From a virus: DNA of 34,858 bases. Below are positions 1-34,858 of this stretch, one piece after another (position 1 is the first letter of the stretch; each line of letters begins with the position of its first letter). Location: the IMG/VR virus record IMGVR_UViG_3300033233_000107, positions 1 to 34,858 of that record; one strand, 5' to 3'. A program made the translations under genes and the position numbers. The notes below the pieces were generated by a model. It was not told the origin of the DNA, made no database searches, and worked only from the letters and a program-made list of their open reading frames with translations.

Positions 1-84
1 GTTCCAGTTCCAGTTCCAGTTCCAGTTCCAGTTCCAGTTCCAGTTCCAGAGTTCAAACGCCGTTCAAACGCCGTTCGAACGGCG
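1..84. repeat. Iteron-like repeats and palindrome inside the replication gene (candidate ori)
   Basis: Eight visible copies of GTTCCA (nine in the complete copy at 34726-34779) are followed by two direct copies of GTTCAAACGCC (51-61, 62-72) and a perfect 16-bp palindrome CGCCGTTCGAACGGCG (69-84). The same structure is at 34782-34815. The repeats lie between the N-terminal DNA-binding part and the C-terminal part of the replication protein. This is the position of the origin iterons in the lambda O gene. The assignment as an origin is inference from layout; the repeats are directly visible. Confidence 0.5.
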
Positions 85-127
85 TTAGCAAGGTCGTGAT
101 GAAGTCCTTCGTAGGTCTTTAGAACTT
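1..127. repeat. Terminal overlap identical to 34732-34858
   Basis: The first 127 bases match the last 127 bases exactly, and the replication reading frame continues across the join without a break. An odd overlap of exactly 127 bases is what a k=127 de Bruijn assembler leaves on a circular contig. This therefore most likely marks a circular or circularly permuted molecule of 34,731 bp, not a true terminal repeat of the virion DNA. The ends fall inside a hexanucleotide repeat, so the copy number there depends on correct assembly; the fully flanked copy at 34726-34779 has nine units. Confidence 0.9.
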
Positions 128-3345: not shown

Positions 3346-3625
3346 TTAATCCGCCTCCCTTCTTGGCACGTTTTGTGCCGTAGTGTTTAAATATTTCATT
3401 CACGCTTCGGGTCGAAATCCCGACGACCGGCGCCGCGCCTGCAGCCCAAAACCACCGGACCGCTATTTCCAGTCCTCTTTCGATTTGTGGCCAGAAATGC
3501 TCGGCGGTGAGAAATAGGGCTATCAGGGCGATGTAGATCGCCAATGAAGCCAGGCCCATAATCCGATCGTTTCGGGCCGATCCGAACCAAAACATTGTTT
3601 GGCGCAGAATCTCTTGCTGATTCAT
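3311..3625 (-). CDS. Small membrane protein
   Basis: 104 residues from ATG 3625, which overlaps the upstream stop (ATGA) and follows GGGAGGTG. Hydrophobic segments at about residues 23-40 and 52-70 suggest two membrane passes. The C-terminus is basic (HYGTKRAKKGGG) and probably cytoplasmic. There is no recognised family. It sits far from the lysis genes, so a holin role is not supported. Confidence 0.65.
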   Translation of the reverse strand: MNQQEILRQTMFWFGSARNDRIMGLASLAIYIALIALFLTAEHFWPQIERGLEIAVRWFWAAGAAPVVGISTRSVNEIFKHYGTKRAKKGGGLIEKARTTGRDA

Positions 3626-4209
3626 GTTTTCACCTCCCTCATTTCATTTTCAAAGCAGTCCAAAAGCCTAAGCAGCATCGGATAAAACTCTGTGGCATTT
3701 TTGCCGTCCATTTTTTTGATTCGGGCCTGGGTAAAGTTGCGCCAGTCTGCGAAGCTGTGGCACTCGCAGCCTGCGGATAGATGTGTGTCTGTAATCGTGA
3801 CAAAATATCGAAGACCGCAGACTGTGATGATGTTCTTCGACACCCGCGCCTCGCCGGACACCCGCGCCTCGCCGGACACCCGCGCCTCGCCGAACACCCG
3901 CGCCTCGCCGAACACCCGCGCCTCGCCGAACACCCGCGCCTCGCCGAACACCCGCGCCTCGCCGAACACCCACGCCTCGCCGGACACCCGCGCCTCGCCG
4001 AACACCCGCGCCTCGCCGAACACCCGCGCCTCGCCGGACACCCACGCCTTGTCGAACACCCACGCCTCGCCGTTGATAAAAGCGCTGTCATCTACTTGGG
4101 CCGTATCCGCAACCCAGCCACCTCCATTGGCGTGTCGATGAGCTGGAACAGGACCGCATCCGTCCTCAAAGTCGAAAGTCAATTGATCTTTTTTTATTTT
4201 CTCTGTCAT
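3622..4209 (-). CDS. Hexapeptide-repeat left-handed beta-helix-like protein
   Basis: 195 residues with an excellent start (GGAGGTG five bases before ATG 4209). Residues ~1-38 are a leader domain with a DxAxV-type opening of repeats (VADTAQVDDSAFI). Then come 13 six-residue units of the form (F/S/N)GEA(R/W)V, and a C-terminal globular part of ~75 residues (from KNIITVCG, with HxxxGCEC). GxAxV hexads of this kind build left-handed parallel beta-helices in acyltransferases and in phage GEARV/GNARV proteins. No acyltransferase active-site histidine can be assigned. The repeat DNA is nearly identical, so unit number is likely to change by slippage. Function unknown. Confidence 0.8.
   Translation of the reverse strand: MTEKIKKDQLTFDFEDGCGPVPAHRHANGGGWVADTAQVDDSAFINGEAWVFDKAWVSGEARVFGEARVFGEARVSGEAWVFGEARVFGEARVFGEARVFGEARVFGEARVSGEARVSGEARVSKNIITVCGLRYFVTITDTHLSAGCECHSFADWRNFTQARIKKMDGKNATEFYPMLLRLLDCFENEMREVKT
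3841..4074. repeat. 18-bp tandem array, 13 units
   Basis: Thirteen in-register 18-bp units, consensus CACCCGCGCCTCGCCGAA on the plus strand, differ mainly at the last bases (GAA, GGA or GTT) and at G/A in position 6. The variation switches F/S/N and R/W in the encoded hexapeptide. Because the unit is a multiple of three, loss or gain of units keeps the frame. The same composition leaves long open frames on the opposite strand, which are not genes. Confidence 0.95.
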
Positions 4210-17622: not shown

Positions 17623-18924
17623 TTACATTTGATTTAATATGAGCCAATTAGCCCCATCGCTAATAAGCTCCATAGCACCGTATGCTGCTGTAATGGTTTT
17701 TGAAGCCGCTCCATCAATCGTTTGACCCTCGACAGGGAACACAACCCATGAAGAAATCGTTGTTTGATTCTTCTTAAGCGTGTACCTTCTCCCAGGGCAG
17801 CTCACGGCAGAGGGCAGATACACATTATCACCATCGGCGACAGTCGTAATCAAAGCCTGCTCTGTCTCATCAAGCGAATGATCGTCATTGCTGATTATAG
17901 TAATCGCTGTTGCAAACGACCCCAAAACATGGAACGCCGAAGTAGGATTTTTCGTTCTTACGCCAAGCCTATCAGTGTTTGTGACTAAAACCGTAGGGTC
18001 AGCGAGATCGCCGGCGCAACCTAACCCGATTGAGTATGCAACATCATTCGTGTGTCGGCCGATGGCAATTGCCTCTGTCGAGAGCGCCGATGCGTGCATC
18101 CCTACAGCCAGCGAGAACCCATCGATTGCTGTGTTCCCATAGCCAATACACATTCCGTCATAGCCGCCTACAATGTTATTCTCGCCATATGCGTGATCCG
18201 AGGCGTAGCTCAGGGTGTTTGCCCAACCAATTGCAACTAACCCATTGTAACATCCGAGTGTGTTGTTGGTTCCTAAAGCGACGCTGGCCGGGCCGGAAAC
18301 ACTGTTCCCAGAACCAATTGCAACGCCGTCGCCGGAGATGATTTGACATTGAGCGCCAATGGCGATCCCTCCAGGAGATAAAACGGATGCACCGTCTCCA
18401 ATTGCTATACCACGATACGACACTGCCGATTTGCCAGCCGCAAACGAAAATTGCCCAGTTTGGGGCCAGGGCTCGTCGGGCCACCCCGCTATTGCTCCTG
18501 GCCCTATCGCTACATTACCCCAATGCGACACCACTAACGCATACGTGTCCTCGCCAGTGTCAAAAGATTTTGCCCCTATTTTAACTGAGCTGCGACGCCA
18601 TTTCCAAGCGGAATCCGTAGTGGGTTCGCTCAAATTGACTGTGATGTTATAGTCGTCGATTTTCGTGACGACTCGATATTCCGACCAGTCGATAGGAATG
18701 TAAATATAATCATCAACCGCCAAAGCTGCGAACGAACCATCAGCAACCGTCATGTCTCCCGCACCGGATGCCGTTACGGTTCCTTGCCCATCATATATCT
18801 GGTCGTCAAGCAGCTTAAAAAATGCTGTCTGGTCCTCCCGTATCCCGGCCAGCCGAGCGGCAAGCGAACCATATGCTGTTATAGCCGAGTCAATAGCGGT
18901 TAAGAGACTTTTACCAACCGACAT
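17623..18924 (-). CDS. Trimeric fibre with YadA-like beta-roll
   Basis: 433 residues with AAGGAGGGATT before ATG 18924. After a helical start and a small domain (~45-110), residues ~130-310 contain many repeats of the form VAIGxGxxxxGxxSVALGxxNxxG (e.g. GVAIGSGNSVSGPASVALG), the left-handed beta-roll of YadA-type trimeric adhesins. Then comes LGVRTKNPTSAFHVLGS, a phrase typical of phage fibres, and a C-terminal beta domain (RYTLKKNQTTISSWVVF ... ISDGANWLIL). Its position near the head genes allows either a head fibre or a tail fibre. Confidence 0.82.
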   Translation of the reverse strand: MSVGKSLLTAIDSAITAYGSLAARLAGIREDQTAFFKLLDDQIYDGQGTVTASGAGDMTVADGSFAALAVDDYIYIPIDWSEYRVVTKIDDYNITVNLSEPTTDSAWKWRRSSVKIGAKSFDTGEDTYALVVSHWGNVAIGPGAIAGWPDEPWPQTGQFSFAAGKSAVSYRGIAIGDGASVLSPGGIAIGAQCQIISGDGVAIGSGNSVSGPASVALGTNNTLGCYNGLVAIGWANTLSYASDHAYGENNIVGGYDGMCIGYGNTAIDGFSLAVGMHASALSTEAIAIGRHTNDVAYSIGLGCAGDLADPTVLVTNTDRLGVRTKNPTSAFHVLGSFATAITIISNDDHSLDETEQALITTVADGDNVYLPSAVSCPGRRYTLKKNQTTISSWVVFPVEGQTIDGAASKTITAAYGAMELISDGANWLILNQM

Positions 18925-18962: not shown

Positions 18963-21269
18963 CTACCTTTTCTCCGGCGCGACTCGCGGGCGGGTGCTTC
19001 TGGGTCTCTTTATCGTGTCCGCCGGCGCCCGGCGGACCGCTTGCCGCGGTCCCTCGATGATAACGGGCACCTGGCGCTTGGCTTTCAGTCTCAAATTTTT
19101 AAACTCTTCCGGATCCATCTGTAAACTCTTTAGTTGTTCCTTCGCTTTAGCCCGATCGGCCGTGCTTAGACTGGCAAAATGCCCGTCTTTTCGGGCCAGA
19201 TACATCGCCCCGGGCCTCTTTGTCGCCACAAATCTAGCGCCCAAATGGGCGAAGCCGACCCAGAGCGCCCCGTCGACCCAGTCGTTGCTCTCGATATAGG
19301 GCTGCTCAACCCAGAGACAGCGCCTGTAAGGCGATAGCGACGTCGATCCGTGTCTCCCCGCCAGCAGGGTTTTGGCGCTTACGTGTGGGAACATCCGATC
19401 GCGTTCGCGTCTCCGGTCGGCGCCGAACTTAATACCGATGCTTACGACGTCGGCGGCCGGCGCGAGTTCCGCGACGTCATCGAGGCAGGTCGGTAGGTTC
19501 TGATCGTCTACGTCAAGGTATTGGATCCACTCGGCTTGGGTGATGGCTACCGCGACGTTCCGGGCCCGGCCCATGCTCTGGTGCTCGGGCAGGGTCGCCA
19601 GTCTCCACGGGATCCCGGCCGCCTCGAGCGGCGGCACACATTGCTTGTCCCAAATGCCGGGAGCGTCGTTCTCTGTCGGTCCCGAAATCACGACCGTGAC
19701 CCGGCTGGGCTTTCGGTTGCTCTGGCATATCGAGCGCGTCCAAGCCGGCAGGAATTTCCCATAGTCCCCGTATAAGGAGGTCACGATCGCCACATCCAGC
19801 GGCTTGCTGGTTTCATCCGCCCGGGGGACGTCGGCGTTGACTTGATCGCCGTCGCTAAGTTCAAAGTGCTTTCTTAAGCATATATCCGATACAAATTCAG
19901 CGTCTTGTGGCCCGTTCTTCGAGAGTGGCGGCCGCATATAATGGCAATCGTGGCCATTTATCTTCGCTGGGTAGAATCGATACGGGCCCCATTCGCTGTC
20001 GACCACGAGTTCCGCCCGGTCTAGTTCAATTCCGGCATCGAGGCGCACGTTCAAGGATCCCGGAAAGGGCTCATATCCTAAGACCTCCGCGACCTTTTTG
20101 GCGTATTTGGTAAGTTGTTTGCTGGTTTTGCCCAGGCCGACCTGCACGATACCCAGATTTGCCGGCAGATTTGCCGGCATTTCCCTGAGCTCGAGCGTCA
20201 CCTGGTCACCATTCTTTAGGCTTAAGTGCTCCCGGAGGTTAACGTCGGCCATGATTTCGGGCACGTCATCCGACCAGCGCGAATGCGGGGGCTTGGCTAT
20301 CCAGCACTCATATCCGTTTAGCGTGCACGGCCAGAGATAGAATTTACCGCCCTGGATCGGAAACGAGGCGGCCTTGTCGCGAGACAAAATCAGATCGTTC
20401 GCCAGTCTGATATTCAGGGTCCCGGCGGCCATTGTTTGGCCGGTGGCTCGTCTCAAATGCGGCGCCCACAGTTCGGTGTGTTTCCGGGCCCCGCCGGTGC
20501 CATCGATCGGTGTCCCGATGCATGGCCCCGGCGGGTATCTCTTGAGCGGCCGCTCGGCCACCTTATCCCGGTCCAGGGTCTTACTGATCACGGCATTATG
20601 CTCTTGGTTTAAGTGCTCGAGGATCGCGTCGGCCCAGCGGACGTTGATGGTCCTGATTTCGCCGCCGGTCGGCGTCTCGATAAAGGCTATGGTCCCTTTT
20701 CGGGTGGCCTCCAGGAGCGCGTCGGCGATCGGCTGCCATTCGTTTACGTTGTGGACCACGCTGAGCGCTAGGATCACATCGTATTTTTCGGCCCGCACGA
20801 TCTCGGCGATTTGCCGGGCGTTTAGCGACCTATTAATGCCGCGCATATTCTTAAAGCCGTTCGCTGCGATAATGTTAAGGAGACATTCGTCTCGGTCGAT
20901 TAAGGTGCAGGCGGCTCCAAAATCGTTAGCGAGACGAAAGCTGAAATATCCTTGTGCCGCGCCAATGTCGAGGACGGTAAATTCCCGGGGGAGGTCTTTA
21001 AGGCTCTCGGCGATCACGCTGTAGCGTTTCTCGCAGTCCCTCTGGCCCTTAGCGACGGTCTTGCCCTTCAACCACACGTCTTGGTAGGGGTTGCGTCCGG
21101 AGGTGCGATACAGTGGCTTCTCCGGCGGTGTTTCCGCCGCGCCTTCATCCCCGACTTTGACTAGGCGTTTGCCCAGCACTCTGATTTCCCCGGGCGTCGG
21201 CTTGAACACGTCGCCGGTTCTGAATCGGGTCCGGCGTATATATTGCCCCTGTACTAACCGATATTCCAT
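18963..21269 (-). CDS. Multi-domain enzyme: SAM methyltransferase, two RibK-like domains, GT2 glycosyltransferase
   Basis: 768 residues, directly after the capsid gene. Residues 1-45: a small head-gene-type lead. Residues ~75-245: class I methyltransferase with motif I VLDIGAAQGYFSF (99-111), D125 after strand 2 and the YDVILALSVVHN helix. Residues ~265-362 and ~372-482: two domains with G(T/S)LN(I/V)RL, PC/PAxxNG(Y/H)xC, and xLREHLxLxxGDQV, the conserved phrases of archaeal CTP-dependent riboflavin kinase (DUF120). The second also keeps GLGKTSKQLTKY. Residues ~490-690: family-2 glycosyltransferase with VAIVTSLYG and a DxD (LDVDD, 585-589). The C-terminus is basic (RRAPADTIKRPRSTRPR). A combined methyl/phosphoryl/glycosyl transfer to a glycan or virion protein is inferred; substrates are unknown. 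Confidence 0.78.
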   Translation of the reverse strand: MEYRLVQGQYIRRTRFRTGDVFKPTPGEIRVLGKRLVKVGDEGAAETPPEKPLYRTSGRNPYQDVWLKGKTVAKGQRDCEKRYSVIAESLKDLPREFTVLDIGAAQGYFSFRLANDFGAACTLIDRDECLLNIIAANGFKNMRGINRSLNARQIAEIVRAEKYDVILALSVVHNVNEWQPIADALLEATRKGTIAFIETPTGGEIRTINVRWADAILEHLNQEHNAVISKTLDRDKVAERPLKRYPPGPCIGTPIDGTGGARKHTELWAPHLRRATGQTMAAGTLNIRLANDLILSRDKAASFPIQGGKFYLWPCTLNGYECWIAKPPHSRWSDDVPEIMADVNLREHLSLKNGDQVTLELREMPANLPANLGIVQVGLGKTSKQLTKYAKKVAEVLGYEPFPGSLNVRLDAGIELDRAELVVDSEWGPYRFYPAKINGHDCHYMRPPLSKNGPQDAEFVSDICLRKHFELSDGDQVNADVPRADETSKPLDVAIVTSLYGDYGKFLPAWTRSICQSNRKPSRVTVVISGPTENDAPGIWDKQCVPPLEAAGIPWRLATLPEHQSMGRARNVAVAITQAEWIQYLDVDDQNLPTCLDDVAELAPAADVVSIGIKFGADRRRERDRMFPHVSAKTLLAGRHGSTSLSPYRRCLWVEQPYIESNDWVDGALWVGFAHLGARFVATKRPGAMYLARKDGHFASLSTADRAKAKEQLKSLQMDPEEFKNLRLKAKRQVPVIIEGPRQAVRRAPADTIKRPRSTRPRVAPEKR

Positions 21270-21301: not shown

Positions 21302-21325
21302 GGATCCCCTCAGATGAGGGGATCC
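21302..21325. ncRNA. Perfect 10-bp hairpin after the capsid gene
   Basis: GGATCCCCTC-AGAT-GAGGGGATCC is a perfect inverted repeat in the 73-bp gap between the capsid stop and the next start. There is no T-run after it in the minus-strand direction, so it is not a normal intrinsic terminator. It may stabilise the capsid mRNA 3-prime end or attenuate transcription of the genes that follow. Confidence 0.7.
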
Positions 21326-21342: not shown

Positions 21343-22626
21343 CTACGCGCTCAGGTCCGGCACGATCATCGAGAAGCTCTGGCCGCGTCTTACCGCGACG
21401 TCGACGTCCTGAAATACGATCGTACGGACGCCGCCGCTCTTGCCGAGCGTGTACGGATCGACAAGCATGTCGAGCCCGCTCCACTGGCCGATGATCACGT
21501 CGTTCCAATTGCCGAACATCAGGGTCTCGGCCTGGTTTGTGCAACCGCACGGATAGCCGTTGAGCGGCGTGGTGTTGTTGCTGTCGTTCCAGATGAAGAC
21601 CGGATACCCCGAGGATTTCTCGGTCGTCTTCAGGAGACCCCTGGTGGCCGCGTCGCAGATGTAGGCCAACGCGCCGAGGTCGGCGTTGTCGAGGGCCACC
21701 TGCGTCTCGAGCTCGACGATGTCGGGCCAAGTCAGGGCATCGATATCGGCCTCGACGGTGTTCACATCGTCCTGCTCCGTCACGCCTTTGGGCTGATTGC
21801 TGGCCCCCAGGCCATGCAGCGCCGCGAGATCGATCGCCAGCGCCAGCACGGCCGCCAGGTCTCTTTTGACAAAGTTCTCTACGTCGATCGAACTTTGGAT
21901 TAAGAGCTGGCGGGTCAGGTCGGTGTACGCTCCGAGCGTCTTAGCGACCAACGGAACCTGGCCCAGCGTCTGTTGGCTCTCAGTAAGGCTGCCGCCTTCA
22001 GCCACCCAGTAAGCCCGACCGGCCGCATTTTGCTTGGGTACCGACAGGTTTCCGACGAGACCGCTCCAGACTTGCGCCCCCATCTGCTTGACGATCATCT
22101 TGTTCCGCAGAATGTCGATGAAATTCGCCGCGTCGACCGTGGTCTGGACGGTATATCCGCCGGCGGTGGGACTGCCGAGGTTCAGATCGCGCTGTTGGAC
22201 CTCAGCGGGCACCCAAAAACCGCGGGCTTCGCGCTTCGATCTCTTGCCGATCTCGTCGCTGGCCTCTTTTTCCAGCTCCGCCCCGCGCCAGTCCTTATTG
22301 GCTTGCGCGTTTATAGCCCGAAGCAGGCTATATTTGCGGAGGTCTTTCTCGTCCATCCCGAGGTTGTTGGGATCGTCGGCGGGCACAACCGTGAAGTTTT
22401 CACCGGCGGCGCGGATGCTTTCCGCCTCGGCGAGCGCAGCCTTGGCCCGCTCGGCGGTGTGCTTGGCCGTTTCGCAGTCCGTAAAGGCTGCGCCCCGGGC
22501 TTCGTCGGTCGTACCTTCCGCCAGGTCCAGGAAGATGCCGCCGGCGCGTTGGACTTCGACGCACGCGTCGTTATACTGCTTTTTCCTTTCCTGGATCAGC
22601 TTTTGGATTTTTTCGTTGTCAGGCAT
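21343..22626 (-). CDS. HK97-family major capsid protein
   Basis: 427 residues. Residues ~1-100 are a charged helical delta (scaffold-like) domain (KIQKLIQERKKQYNDACVEVQRAGG ... ERAKAALAEAESI), expected to be cut off by the protease. Residues ~130-427 show the capsid fold: VSVPK-like SVPKQNAAGRAYWVAEG, TKTLGAYTDLTRQLLIQSS, DLAAVLALAIDLAALHGLG, and the C-terminal VRRGQSFSMI. Overlaps the protease gene by 31 bases. It builds the icosahedral head. Confidence 0.95.
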   Translation of the reverse strand: MPDNEKIQKLIQERKKQYNDACVEVQRAGGIFLDLAEGTTDEARGAAFTDCETAKHTAERAKAALAEAESIRAAGENFTVVPADDPNNLGMDEKDLRKYSLLRAINAQANKDWRGAELEKEASDEIGKRSKREARGFWVPAEVQQRDLNLGSPTAGGYTVQTTVDAANFIDILRNKMIVKQMGAQVWSGLVGNLSVPKQNAAGRAYWVAEGGSLTESQQTLGQVPLVAKTLGAYTDLTRQLLIQSSIDVENFVKRDLAAVLALAIDLAALHGLGASNQPKGVTEQDDVNTVEADIDALTWPDIVELETQVALDNADLGALAYICDAATRGLLKTTEKSSGYPVFIWNDSNNTTPLNGYPCGCTNQAETLMFGNWNDVIIGQWSGLDMLVDPYTLGKSGGVRTIVFQDVDVAVRRGQSFSMIVPDLSA

Positions 22627-29860: not shown

Positions 29861-30325
29861 CTACTCTGGCTTGATTAGCACGTCGCCCTCTCGCGCCTCA
29901 TAATTTTTAAACCACCTATTCACGATCTCTTGCCAGGCGCCGGCGTTTTGCGATCGGCGTGCATCCCTGCCTATATGGTCGTAGCATTCTTGCTTGTGTG
30001 CGTCGATAAGAATTATCTTAGCGCCTAGTCGATCGGCTAATTCTTGCCTTTGTTCTGGCCGTGGAGCGCCGACCACGATCCATGCACGATAGATGCTTGA
30101 TGGTTGCTCAAGTCTAACTAGAATGCCATCCCAGGCCGCCGCCACAAAAGGGGCCAGGGCCTCCGGTGAATAGTAGTAAGGCTGCCCTGTTAGCGCCTGC
30201 CAGATCGCATCTCTATCCAGGATTAGGTCGCCGGGCTTGGCGTGTCTCTTGACGTAGGTGGTTTTCCCACAGCCGGGGGAGCCGCAAATAACGATGACGG
30301 CTGGCCGGTCCTGGGTTTTTAGCAT
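29861..30325 (-). CDS. P-loop kinase-like protein
   Basis: 154 residues from ATG 30325 (GGAGA upstream; a longer start at 30367 is not favoured). A clear P-loop GSPGCGKTT at residues 15-23 follows a beta strand (AVIVIC), with an LDRDAIWQALTG segment after it, a WIVVGAPRPEQRQELADRLGAKIILIDA block and a C-terminal arginine-rich lid (IGRDARRSQN). This resembles small polynucleotide/nucleotide kinases of phages. Substrate unknown. It overlaps the upstream HNH gene by seven bases. Confidence 0.75.
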   Translation of the reverse strand: MLKTQDRPAVIVICGSPGCGKTTYVKRHAKPGDLILDRDAIWQALTGQPYYYSPEALAPFVAAAWDGILVRLEQPSSIYRAWIVVGAPRPEQRQELADRLGAKIILIDAHKQECYDHIGRDARRSQNAGAWQEIVNRWFKNYEAREGDVLIKPE

Positions 30326-30561
30326 ACCCGTTCTCCGTGGTCGTTTTCCCTGTGGCACTTGTAGCACCAGAGGCGCACGTTCTCTTCGGTGGTCTCTCCG
30401 CCTTGGCCCGTGAAGACCTCATGTGCCATCTCGAGGCGGTACTTGGTCCCATTATGACCGCATCTCTCGCAGGCCAGGTAATCGGTTCCGTCTTCGTCTT
30501 GGCGAGTGGCTCGGCGGTAGACGGCCTCATAGACTTTGCGCTCGGCTATTTTCATAGGCAT
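30319..30561 (-). CDS. Small HNH protein
   Basis: 80 residues. HNH elements: C31-x2-C34 (CERCG), H47 (EMAHEVF), N61 (TEENVRL) and C66-x2-C69-H70 (CYKCHREND). It begins 2 bases after a terminator T-tract and has no clear ribosome-binding site; ATG 30555 is an alternative start. Sequence differs from the HNH proteins at 29568 and 33349, so they are not copies of each other. Confidence 0.8.
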   Translation of the reverse strand: MPMKIAERKVYEAVYRRATRQDEDGTDYLACERCGHNGTKYRLEMAHEVFTGQGGETTEENVRLWCYKCHRENDHGERVC

Positions 30562-34396: not shown

Positions 34397-34858
34397 CGGC
34401 CTCCTTTCGTTTTCTCGCCTCGGCTATCCAGTCAGGTTCAGCCTTGCCGCGTTTACCGCCGGTGCCTGGAGCTTTCTCTTGCGATCTGGATAGCCAGTTA
34501 ACCAAGAAGCGCTCGTTGTTTTTTTTCCGGTTTTTCGGGTTGGCTTTAAGCCATACCGCGGCCGCCTTTATCTCGCGTTCCACGTCAATGGCCGGATTTG
34601 CCTCACGCCACAATGCTAGGTCTGCGTCTTCAATTCCTGAAAACGATCCGGTGTCATGATCGAATGCGATTACTTTTGGTGGCTTTCGCTCTGGTTTCGA
34701 GTTTTCGTTTCGGGCTAACGTACTTGTTCCAGTTCCAGTTCCAGTTCCAGTTCCAGTTCCAGTTCCAGTTCCAGTTCCAGAGTTCAAACGCCGTTCAAAC
34801 GCCGTTCGAACGGCGTTAGCAAGGTCGTGATGAAGTCCTTCGTAGGTCTTTAGAACTT
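34377..34858 (-). CDS. Phage replication initiation protein (C-terminal part)
   Basis: Continuation of the gene that begins at 476. The last 127 bases repeat 1-127, so the reading frame is open to the end of the window. It includes the nine Gly-Thr pairs (34726-34779), a Ser/Thr/Lys/Pro linker and a C-terminal domain (DLALWREANPAIDVEREIKAA, AVWLKANPKNRKKNNERFLVNWL). This last phrase is typical of the C-terminal module of O-like phage replication proteins. The stop overlaps the next start (34396) by 20 bases. Confidence 0.8.
   Translation of the reverse strand, partial: VLKTYEGLHHDLANAVRTAFERRLNSGTGTGTGTGTGTGTGTGTSTLARNENSKPERKPPKVIAFDHDTGSFSGIEDADLALWREANPAIDVEREIKAAAVWLKANPKNRKKNNERFLVNWLSRSQEKAPGTGGKRGKAEPDWIAEARKRKEADEQTGI

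What the first reader, a model, noticed from the sequence alone, without database searches (positions are those of the whole stretch)
18963..21269. Methyltransferase + two RibK-like kinase domains + glycosyltransferase in one 768-residue phage protein
Four enzyme-like modules lie in order in one protein directly after the capsid gene. The two middle domains share G(T/S)LN(I/V)RL, xLREHLxLxxGDQV and the preceding GLGKTSK-like loop with archaeal CTP-dependent riboflavin kinase (DUF120), a family not usual in phages. A methyl, phosphoryl (or nucleotidyl) and sugar transfer chain acting on a glycan, or on virion or surface proteins, would be a new type of phage modification system. Domain boundaries come from motif reading; the substrate is unknown.
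Basis: partly seen in the sequence, partly recalled or inferred. Interest (0 to 1): 0.82.

Follow-up and report, generated by a model that had tools for sequence, protein, structure and literature searches.

The report
Phage glycan-capping enzyme with riboflavin-kinase-like kinases
A phage gene next to the capsid gene encodes one protein that probably adds a sugar, a phosphate and a methyl group to make a capped glycan on the virus particle, using a kinase fold otherwise known from archaeal vitamin B2 metabolism.

Summary
One 768-aa ORF carries a methyltransferase (MT), two PF01982 (CTP-dependent riboflavin kinase, RibK) domains and a GT2 glycosyltransferase, directly downstream of the capsid gene. 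Each RibK domain passes Pfam's cut-off alone, and the modelled first domain matches M. jannaschii RibK at Z 14.8.

The MT belongs to a phage family whose best solved relative is WbdD, the methyltransferase-kinase that caps E. coli O9a glycans with methyl-phosphate. In all 38 IMG/VR loci surveyed plus the window (about 30 distinct phages) this MT has a kinase partner, and only one type per locus: a protein-kinase-like (PKL) gene upstream, a PKL-like module fused C-terminally as in WbdD, or a RibK domain fused C-terminally. The PKL type occurs in mycobacteriophage kinase-MT-GT operons whose MT and GT resemble the window's.

Best reading: RibK-fold domains fill the kinase slot of a phage methyl-phosphate glycan-capping module, probably acting on the virion. 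Nucleotide and metal motifs are kept; the flavin-contact threonine is lost. MT-RibK fusions recur in 11 other viral contigs but in none of 50,697 deposited phages. The tandem RibK-GT fusion was seen only here. Substrate and CTP use are untested.

The parts
18963..21269 (-). 768-aa gene: MT - RibK1 - RibK2 - GT2; ATG at 21267-21269, preceded by GAAAGGATTTATAG
20532..21095 (-). WbdD-like methyltransferase domain (residues 59-246); R77/R82 (RDCEKR), H173-N174 and R240 align with WbdD R31/R36, H132-H133 and R203
20187..20510 (-). RibK-like domain 1 (residues 254-361), GxG and GTLN kept, divergent helix region
19827..20147 (-). RibK-like domain 2 (residues 375-481), VGLGK loop, LGYEPFPGSLN, LRKHFELSDGD
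19113..19799 (-). GT2-family glycosyltransferase domain (residues 491-719), LDVDD motif, same family as mycobacteriophage Redno2 gp17 / Tweety gp104
18966..19112 (-). basic C-terminal tail, modelled with very low confidence
21343..22626 (-). major capsid protein gene directly upstream; candidate glycan acceptor
17623..18924 (-). gene directly downstream: YadA-head-like repeats by eye (AIGxGA), fibre-like; candidate glycan acceptor
   Evidence: only a weak PHROG match of unknown function

Best explanation
The protein is a phage-encoded glycan-building and capping enzyme. The GT2 domain adds a sugar (inferred). One or both RibK-fold domains then phosphorylate the sugar, using CTP or another nucleotide (inferred from the family), and the WbdD-like MT methylates that phosphate (inferred from homology and aligned residues), giving a methyl-phosphate-capped glycan. 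The target is most likely a virion protein made from the same operon, such as the capsid or the fibre-like neighbour (inferred from position). Shown here: the domains and folds; the WbdD kinship of the MT; a kinase with this MT in every surveyed locus; and RibK-type instead of PKL-type kinase in that slot.
For: (1) RibK identity: Pfam 48.2 and 60.1 bits against a cut-off of 25; the domain 1 model (pLDDT 87) matches MJ0056 RibK with CDP+FMN at Z 14.8, rmsd 2.7 over 119 residues, with unrelated folds at Z 7.2 or less. (2) The MT profile finds WbdD at 9.6e-12, the next natural methyltransferase at 1.4e-5; Foldseek of the full model ranks WbdD 4azs first, although generic methyltransferases follow closely. 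(3) WbdD residues essential for methylating phosphate (R203, H132, H133; PMC3482155) align with a conserved R and with HH in the phage MTs; the window keeps R240 and H173. (4) Survey: 12 loci MT-RibK (window included), 15 MT-PKL-like fusions, 12 upstream PKL kinase, none without a kinase, none with RibK plus PKL. (5) Nearest MT/GT relatives are mycobacteriophage kinase-MT-GT operons (35-36% identity). (6) MT-RibK genes lie just downstream of capsid genes with other GT genes. (7) Klebsiella O7 ORF6 joins MT, a non-WbdD kinase and GT2 in one methyl-phosphate-making protein (PMC11231755). (8) Capsid and tail-tube glycosylation is reported for mycobacteriophages.
Against: No biochemistry. HH is common in class I methyltransferases, and the second His is Asn in the window. 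The nearest known phage systems were found by homology; no methyl-phosphate has been shown on any phage here. RibK domain 1 is very divergent (LGYEPFP region lost) and could be inactive. Loss of the flavin threonine shows divergence, not which substrate replaced riboflavin. The GT region of the model is poor (pLDDT mostly under 50). The surveyed MTs were found by homology to kinase-linked ones, so the survey is not an unbiased sample, and near-identical contigs inflate the 39 counted loci to more than the roughly 30 distinct phages.
Confidence: 0.6

Rival explanations
1. Same enzyme chemistry, but the target is the host surface glycan (LPS, capsule or teichoic polymer), altering phage receptors during lysogeny or infection.
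For: WbdD and Klebsiella O7 ORF6 act on cell-surface polysaccharide (PMC3482155, PMC11231755); the window phage carries an integrase and so may be temperate.
Against: The gene lies inside the late structural operon between capsid and a fibre-like gene, and relatives sit beside capsid genes in phages with different neighbours; no transporter gene is seen beside it.
Confidence: 0.15
2. The RibK domains are not glycan kinases: they phosphorylate a serine, threonine or small molecule, or transfer a nucleotidyl group, and the MT and GT act on sugar hydroxyls independently.
For: Acceptor residues differ from riboflavin kinase (the Thr99 position is Arg in 10 phage domains, Ser in both window domains), so the acceptor is unknown; E. 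coli O8 WbdD methylates sugar hydroxyls without a kinase.
Against: The same MT has some kinase in every locus surveyed and the RibK type takes the place of PKL types in that slot, which argues for one shared substrate; the R203-equivalent is kept in all MTs where that end aligns.
Confidence: 0.15
3. One or both RibK domains have lost catalysis and only bind CTP or a sugar nucleotide, as a sensor or scaffold.
For: Domain 1 has a very long branch (3.69 changes per column) and lacks several conserved positions.
Against: GxG, G[T/S]LN, Glu107, Arg115 and the DG/NG positions are kept in both domains and in single-domain relatives.
Confidence: 0.1

Closest known systems
WbdD (E. coli O9a / K. pneumoniae O3) methyltransferase-kinase
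   Same: Class I MT homologous over the domain (9.6e-12), MT followed by kinase in one chain, key residues R31, R36, H132, R203 aligned.
   Different: Kinase is RibK fold (twice) instead of protein-kinase fold; a GT2 domain is attached; second His is Asn; phage-encoded.
K. pneumoniae O7 ORF6 (MT - kinase - coiled coil - GT2; methyl-phosphate terminus; PMC11231755)
   Same: MT, a kinase unlike WbdD's, and GT2 in one protein in the same order.
   Different: Its kinase resembles AmiN-type kinases, with a coiled-coil ruler; acts on O-antigen. No sequence comparison could be made here.
Mycobacteriophage kinase-MT-GT operon (Redno2 gp15-17, Tweety gp102-104)
   Same: MT and GT are homologous (36% and 35% identity), with a kinase, near the capsid gene in Redno2.
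   Different: Three separate genes; kinase is PKL (APH/WaaP-like) placed first, no RibK domain.
Archaeal CTP-dependent riboflavin kinase RibK (MJ0056, RbkR)
   Same: Family PF01982, same fold, nucleotide/metal motifs kept.
   Different: Forms a separate branch from 16 archaeal enzymes (100/99), fused to MT, flavin-contact Thr lost, far below NCBIfam riboflavin kinase cut-offs.

Membership tests
CTP-dependent riboflavin kinase superfamily (PF01982) | Passes Pfam gathering score | tested here: met
   48.2 and 60.1 bits vs 25
CTP-dependent riboflavin kinase superfamily (PF01982) | RibK fold | tested here: met
   domain 1 model vs 2vbv_A Z 14.8, rmsd 2.7, 119 residues; domain 2 by sequence plus a model of moderate confidence
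Riboflavin kinase (the enzyme) | Equivalog score of NCBIfam riboflavin kinase models | tested here: not met
   66.8 vs 279 and 64.9 vs 168 bits
Riboflavin kinase (the enzyme) | Mg-binding Thr43/Asn45 and G-loop (roles from own knowledge of MJ0056) | tested here: met
   GTLN in domain 1, GSLN (conservative) in domain 2; GxG in both
Riboflavin kinase (the enzyme) | Flavin-contact Thr99 (role from own knowledge) | tested here: not met
   Thr/Ser in 14 of 14 archaeal, Arg in 10 of 10 phage domains, Ser in both window domains
Riboflavin kinase (the enzyme) | CTP dependence | not testable with these tools
   needs enzyme assay
WbdD-type methyl-phosphate capping enzyme | Homologous MT domain | tested here: met
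WbdD-type methyl-phosphate capping enzyme | Phosphate-processing residues R203, H132, H133 | tested here: inconclusive
   R203 and H132 equivalents present; H133 is Asn in the window, His in most relatives; HH is common in MTs
WbdD-type methyl-phosphate capping enzyme | Protein-kinase-fold kinase domain | tested here: not met
   RibK domains in that place
WbdD-type methyl-phosphate capping enzyme | Methyl-phosphate product | not testable with these tools
   needs NMR or mass spectrometry
Phage virion glycosylation module (mycobacteriophage type) | Homologous GT and MT near structural genes | tested here: met
Phage virion glycosylation module (mycobacteriophage type) | Glycan on capsid or tail protein | not testable with these tools
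   reported for Che8, Corndog, Myrna, Rita in papers citing Freeman 2023

The most novel reading that the evidence does not exclude
A CTP-dependent kinase fold thought confined to archaeal riboflavin metabolism was recruited by phages as a glycan kinase, and phages cap virion glycans with methyl-phosphate, with the kinase slot filled by unrelated or differently arranged kinases in different lineages; the window adds a second RibK domain and the glycosyltransferase in one chain.
Probability: 0.5. Interest if true: 0.8.

Novelty: new variant of a known kind. Interest (0 to 1): 0.63.

Why it matters
It predicts a chemical modification not yet described on phage particles, as far as the searched literature shows (methyl-phospho-glycan), gives the RibK fold a function outside riboflavin metabolism, and offers an explanation for the kinase and methyltransferase genes that sit beside capsid-proximal glycosyltransferases in well-studied mycobacteriophages. 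Those phages grow in laboratory strains, so the prediction can be tested directly by mass spectrometry. Virion glycosylation is reported to shield mycobacteriophages from antibodies (PMC12363180), so the nature of the cap matters for phage biology.

Tried and rejected
Single-sequence scan of IMG/VR with the whole protein found no relative. A six-sequence RibK alignment was too diverse to scan with. tblastn of RibK domains in deposited phages gave only chance matches (E 5 or more; none); plasmid hits were mainly haloarchaeal riboflavin kinases. The N-terminal 58 residues match no Pfam, PHROG or phage protein. The idea that the C-terminal part of the third MT group was a diverged RibK was rejected: profile comparison matches the PKL catalytic segment (84.8%) and not RibK (0.1%); that segment is short, so 'PKL-like' is probable, not proven. 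PDB matches of that profile to ETV6 constructs look spurious. Host-genome searches were not possible because the window is a virus record; the only genome-contig scan returned archaeal loci, but its patterns were narrow, so bacterial RibK outside phages is not excluded. That domains 1 and 2 are sisters is not rejected (p-AU 0.47) nor shown. No held paper found links RibK/DUF120 or WbdD with phage capsids; the original virion glycosylation paper is not held.

Full report
What is there. The finding's coordinates are right, with the gene on the minus strand: 18963-21269 encodes 768 residues without a stop. Profiles place a class I methyltransferase at residues 59-246, RibK-like domains at 254-361 and 375-481, and a GT2 glycosyltransferase at 491-719, followed by a basic tail. 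The RibK assignment is beyond chance: each domain alone passes the PF01982 cut-off (48.2 and 60.1 bits against 25), and domain 2 finds M. jannaschii RibK in the PDB by sequence at 5e-6.

Folds. Domain 1, the more divergent, was modelled with 22 relatives (pLDDT 87). Its best structural match is MJ0056 RibK with CDP and FMN, Z 14.8, rmsd 2.7 over 119 residues; all seven top rows are RibK structures and the first unrelated fold is at Z 7.2 (Foldseek agrees). The alignment supplied RibK relatives, so the model leans towards that fold, but the confidence is high. In the full-length model the MT is confident, the RibK region moderate and the GT region poor; Foldseek ranks WbdD 4azs first for it, with generic methyltransferases close behind.

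Active-site comparison. Numbered on MJ0056, the positions that hold nucleotide and metal (roles from general knowledge of the MJ0056 complexes) are kept: G16 and G18 in all phage domains, N45 in all, T43 as Ser in relatives and domain 2 and Thr in domain 1, E107 and R115 in all. The flavin-contact T99 is Thr or Ser in 14 of 14 archaeal enzymes, Arg in 10 of 10 phage domains and Ser in both window domains. NCBIfam riboflavin kinase models score far below their cut-offs. So the domains are RibK-fold with a probable nucleotide site but are not filed as riboflavin kinases. In a tree, nine phage domains including both window domains lie on one side of a branch against 16 archaeal enzymes (100/99).

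Relatives. Among 50,697 deposited phages the full protein matches only mycobacteriophages, through MT and GT. In Redno2 these are gp16 and gp17, behind kinase gp15 and near the capsid gene gp13; in Tweety gp102-104. That kinase is APH/WaaP-like, PKL superfamily. No deposited phage has a detectable RibK domain of this type. IMG/VR does: MT-RibK fusions of about 300-330 aa in L006, L007, L008, L034, L036, L037 (L038 is a near copy), L039, L059, L060, L080 and L090. In L006, L007, L008, L034, L036, L037 and L039 the gene lies just downstream of the major capsid gene, with Gly_transf_sug or other GT genes and FkbM or other methyltransferase genes beside it. The window is the only case seen with two RibK domains and with the GT fused.

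The kinase slot. A profile of the phage MTs finds WbdD first (9.6e-12; next natural methyltransferase 1.4e-5). WbdD phosphorylates the terminal mannose of a glycan and methylates that phosphate; R203, H132 and H133 are essential and are named as what allows a phosphate acceptor (PMC3482155). With the chain offset of 13, R203 aligns with the R of the RP(L/M/I) motif near the MT end, and H132-H133 with the HH of LSVLHH; the window has R240 and H173-N174. HH alone is weak evidence because many class I methyltransferases have it. Scanning the loci held for this MT family gave 12 loci with a C-terminal RibK (window included), 15 with a C-terminal fused segment bearing HGDxxPxN...ID, and 12 with an upstream PKL kinase gene. 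None lacked a kinase and none had RibK plus PKL. Several contigs are near copies, so about 30 are distinct. The fused segment matches the phage PKL kinases at the catalytic loop and not RibK.

Mechanism. The simplest account is that the MT needs a phosphate made by its partner, and that phages have used RibK-fold or PKL kinases for the same step. With the GT this gives sugar addition, phosphorylation and phosphate methylation. A precedent for such mixing is K. pneumoniae O7 ORF6, where MT, a kinase unlike WbdD's and GT2 share one chain and make a methyl-phosphate terminus (PMC11231755). The target is inferred from position: late operon, between the capsid gene and a fibre-like gene. Capsid or tail-tube glycosylation is reported for mycobacteriophages Che8, Corndog, Myrna and Rita (citing a paper not held here). 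Shown: domains, fold of domain 1, kinship, linkage. Inferred: substrate, nucleotide, order of steps, virion as target.

Verdict. It is a new variant of a known kind: a WbdD-like methyl-phosphate glycan module of phages with a RibK-type kinase. The interest lies in the predicted modification and the new use of the RibK fold, and in how directly it can be tested on mycobacteriophages in M. smegmatis.

Noticed in passing
window 1-127 and 34732-34858: Exact 127-base direct repeat at the two ends (GTTCCA repeats and following sequence), so the contig is probably a complete, circularly closed phage assembly.
   Followed up: partly
window 21302-21325: Perfect 11-bp inverted repeat (GGATCCCCTCA-TC-TGAGGGGATCC) between the capsid gene and this gene, terminator-like but without a clean T run; could tune expression of the enzyme relative to capsid.
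   Followed up: no
window 17623-18924 (-): 433-aa protein with YadA-head-like AIGxGA repeats by eye and a fibre-like C-terminus, no Pfam match; possible head fibre and possible glycan acceptor.
   Followed up: partly
window 3622-4209 (-): Protein of tandem GEARVFGEARVS-type units, YdcK beta-solenoid repeat in Pfam (6e-11); repetitive DNA with long open frames in several frames.
   Followed up: no
L035, L069-L079, L081-L083: MTs fused to a very short (about 120 aa) C-terminal segment with a PKL catalytic loop but no recognisable N-lobe: a minimal kinase-like module of unclear activity.
   Followed up: partly
L090 3279-3992 and L036 6051-6797: Dehydrogenase-like genes (IIGAGEVGEAL..., VVGAGEVGTAV...) beside the GT and MT-RibK genes, perhaps making a sugar-nucleotide precursor.
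   Followed up: no
window 29861-30367 (-): P-loop AAA_33 protein (kinase-like, VICGSPGCGKTTY), unrelated to the RibK or PKL kinases.
   Followed up: no
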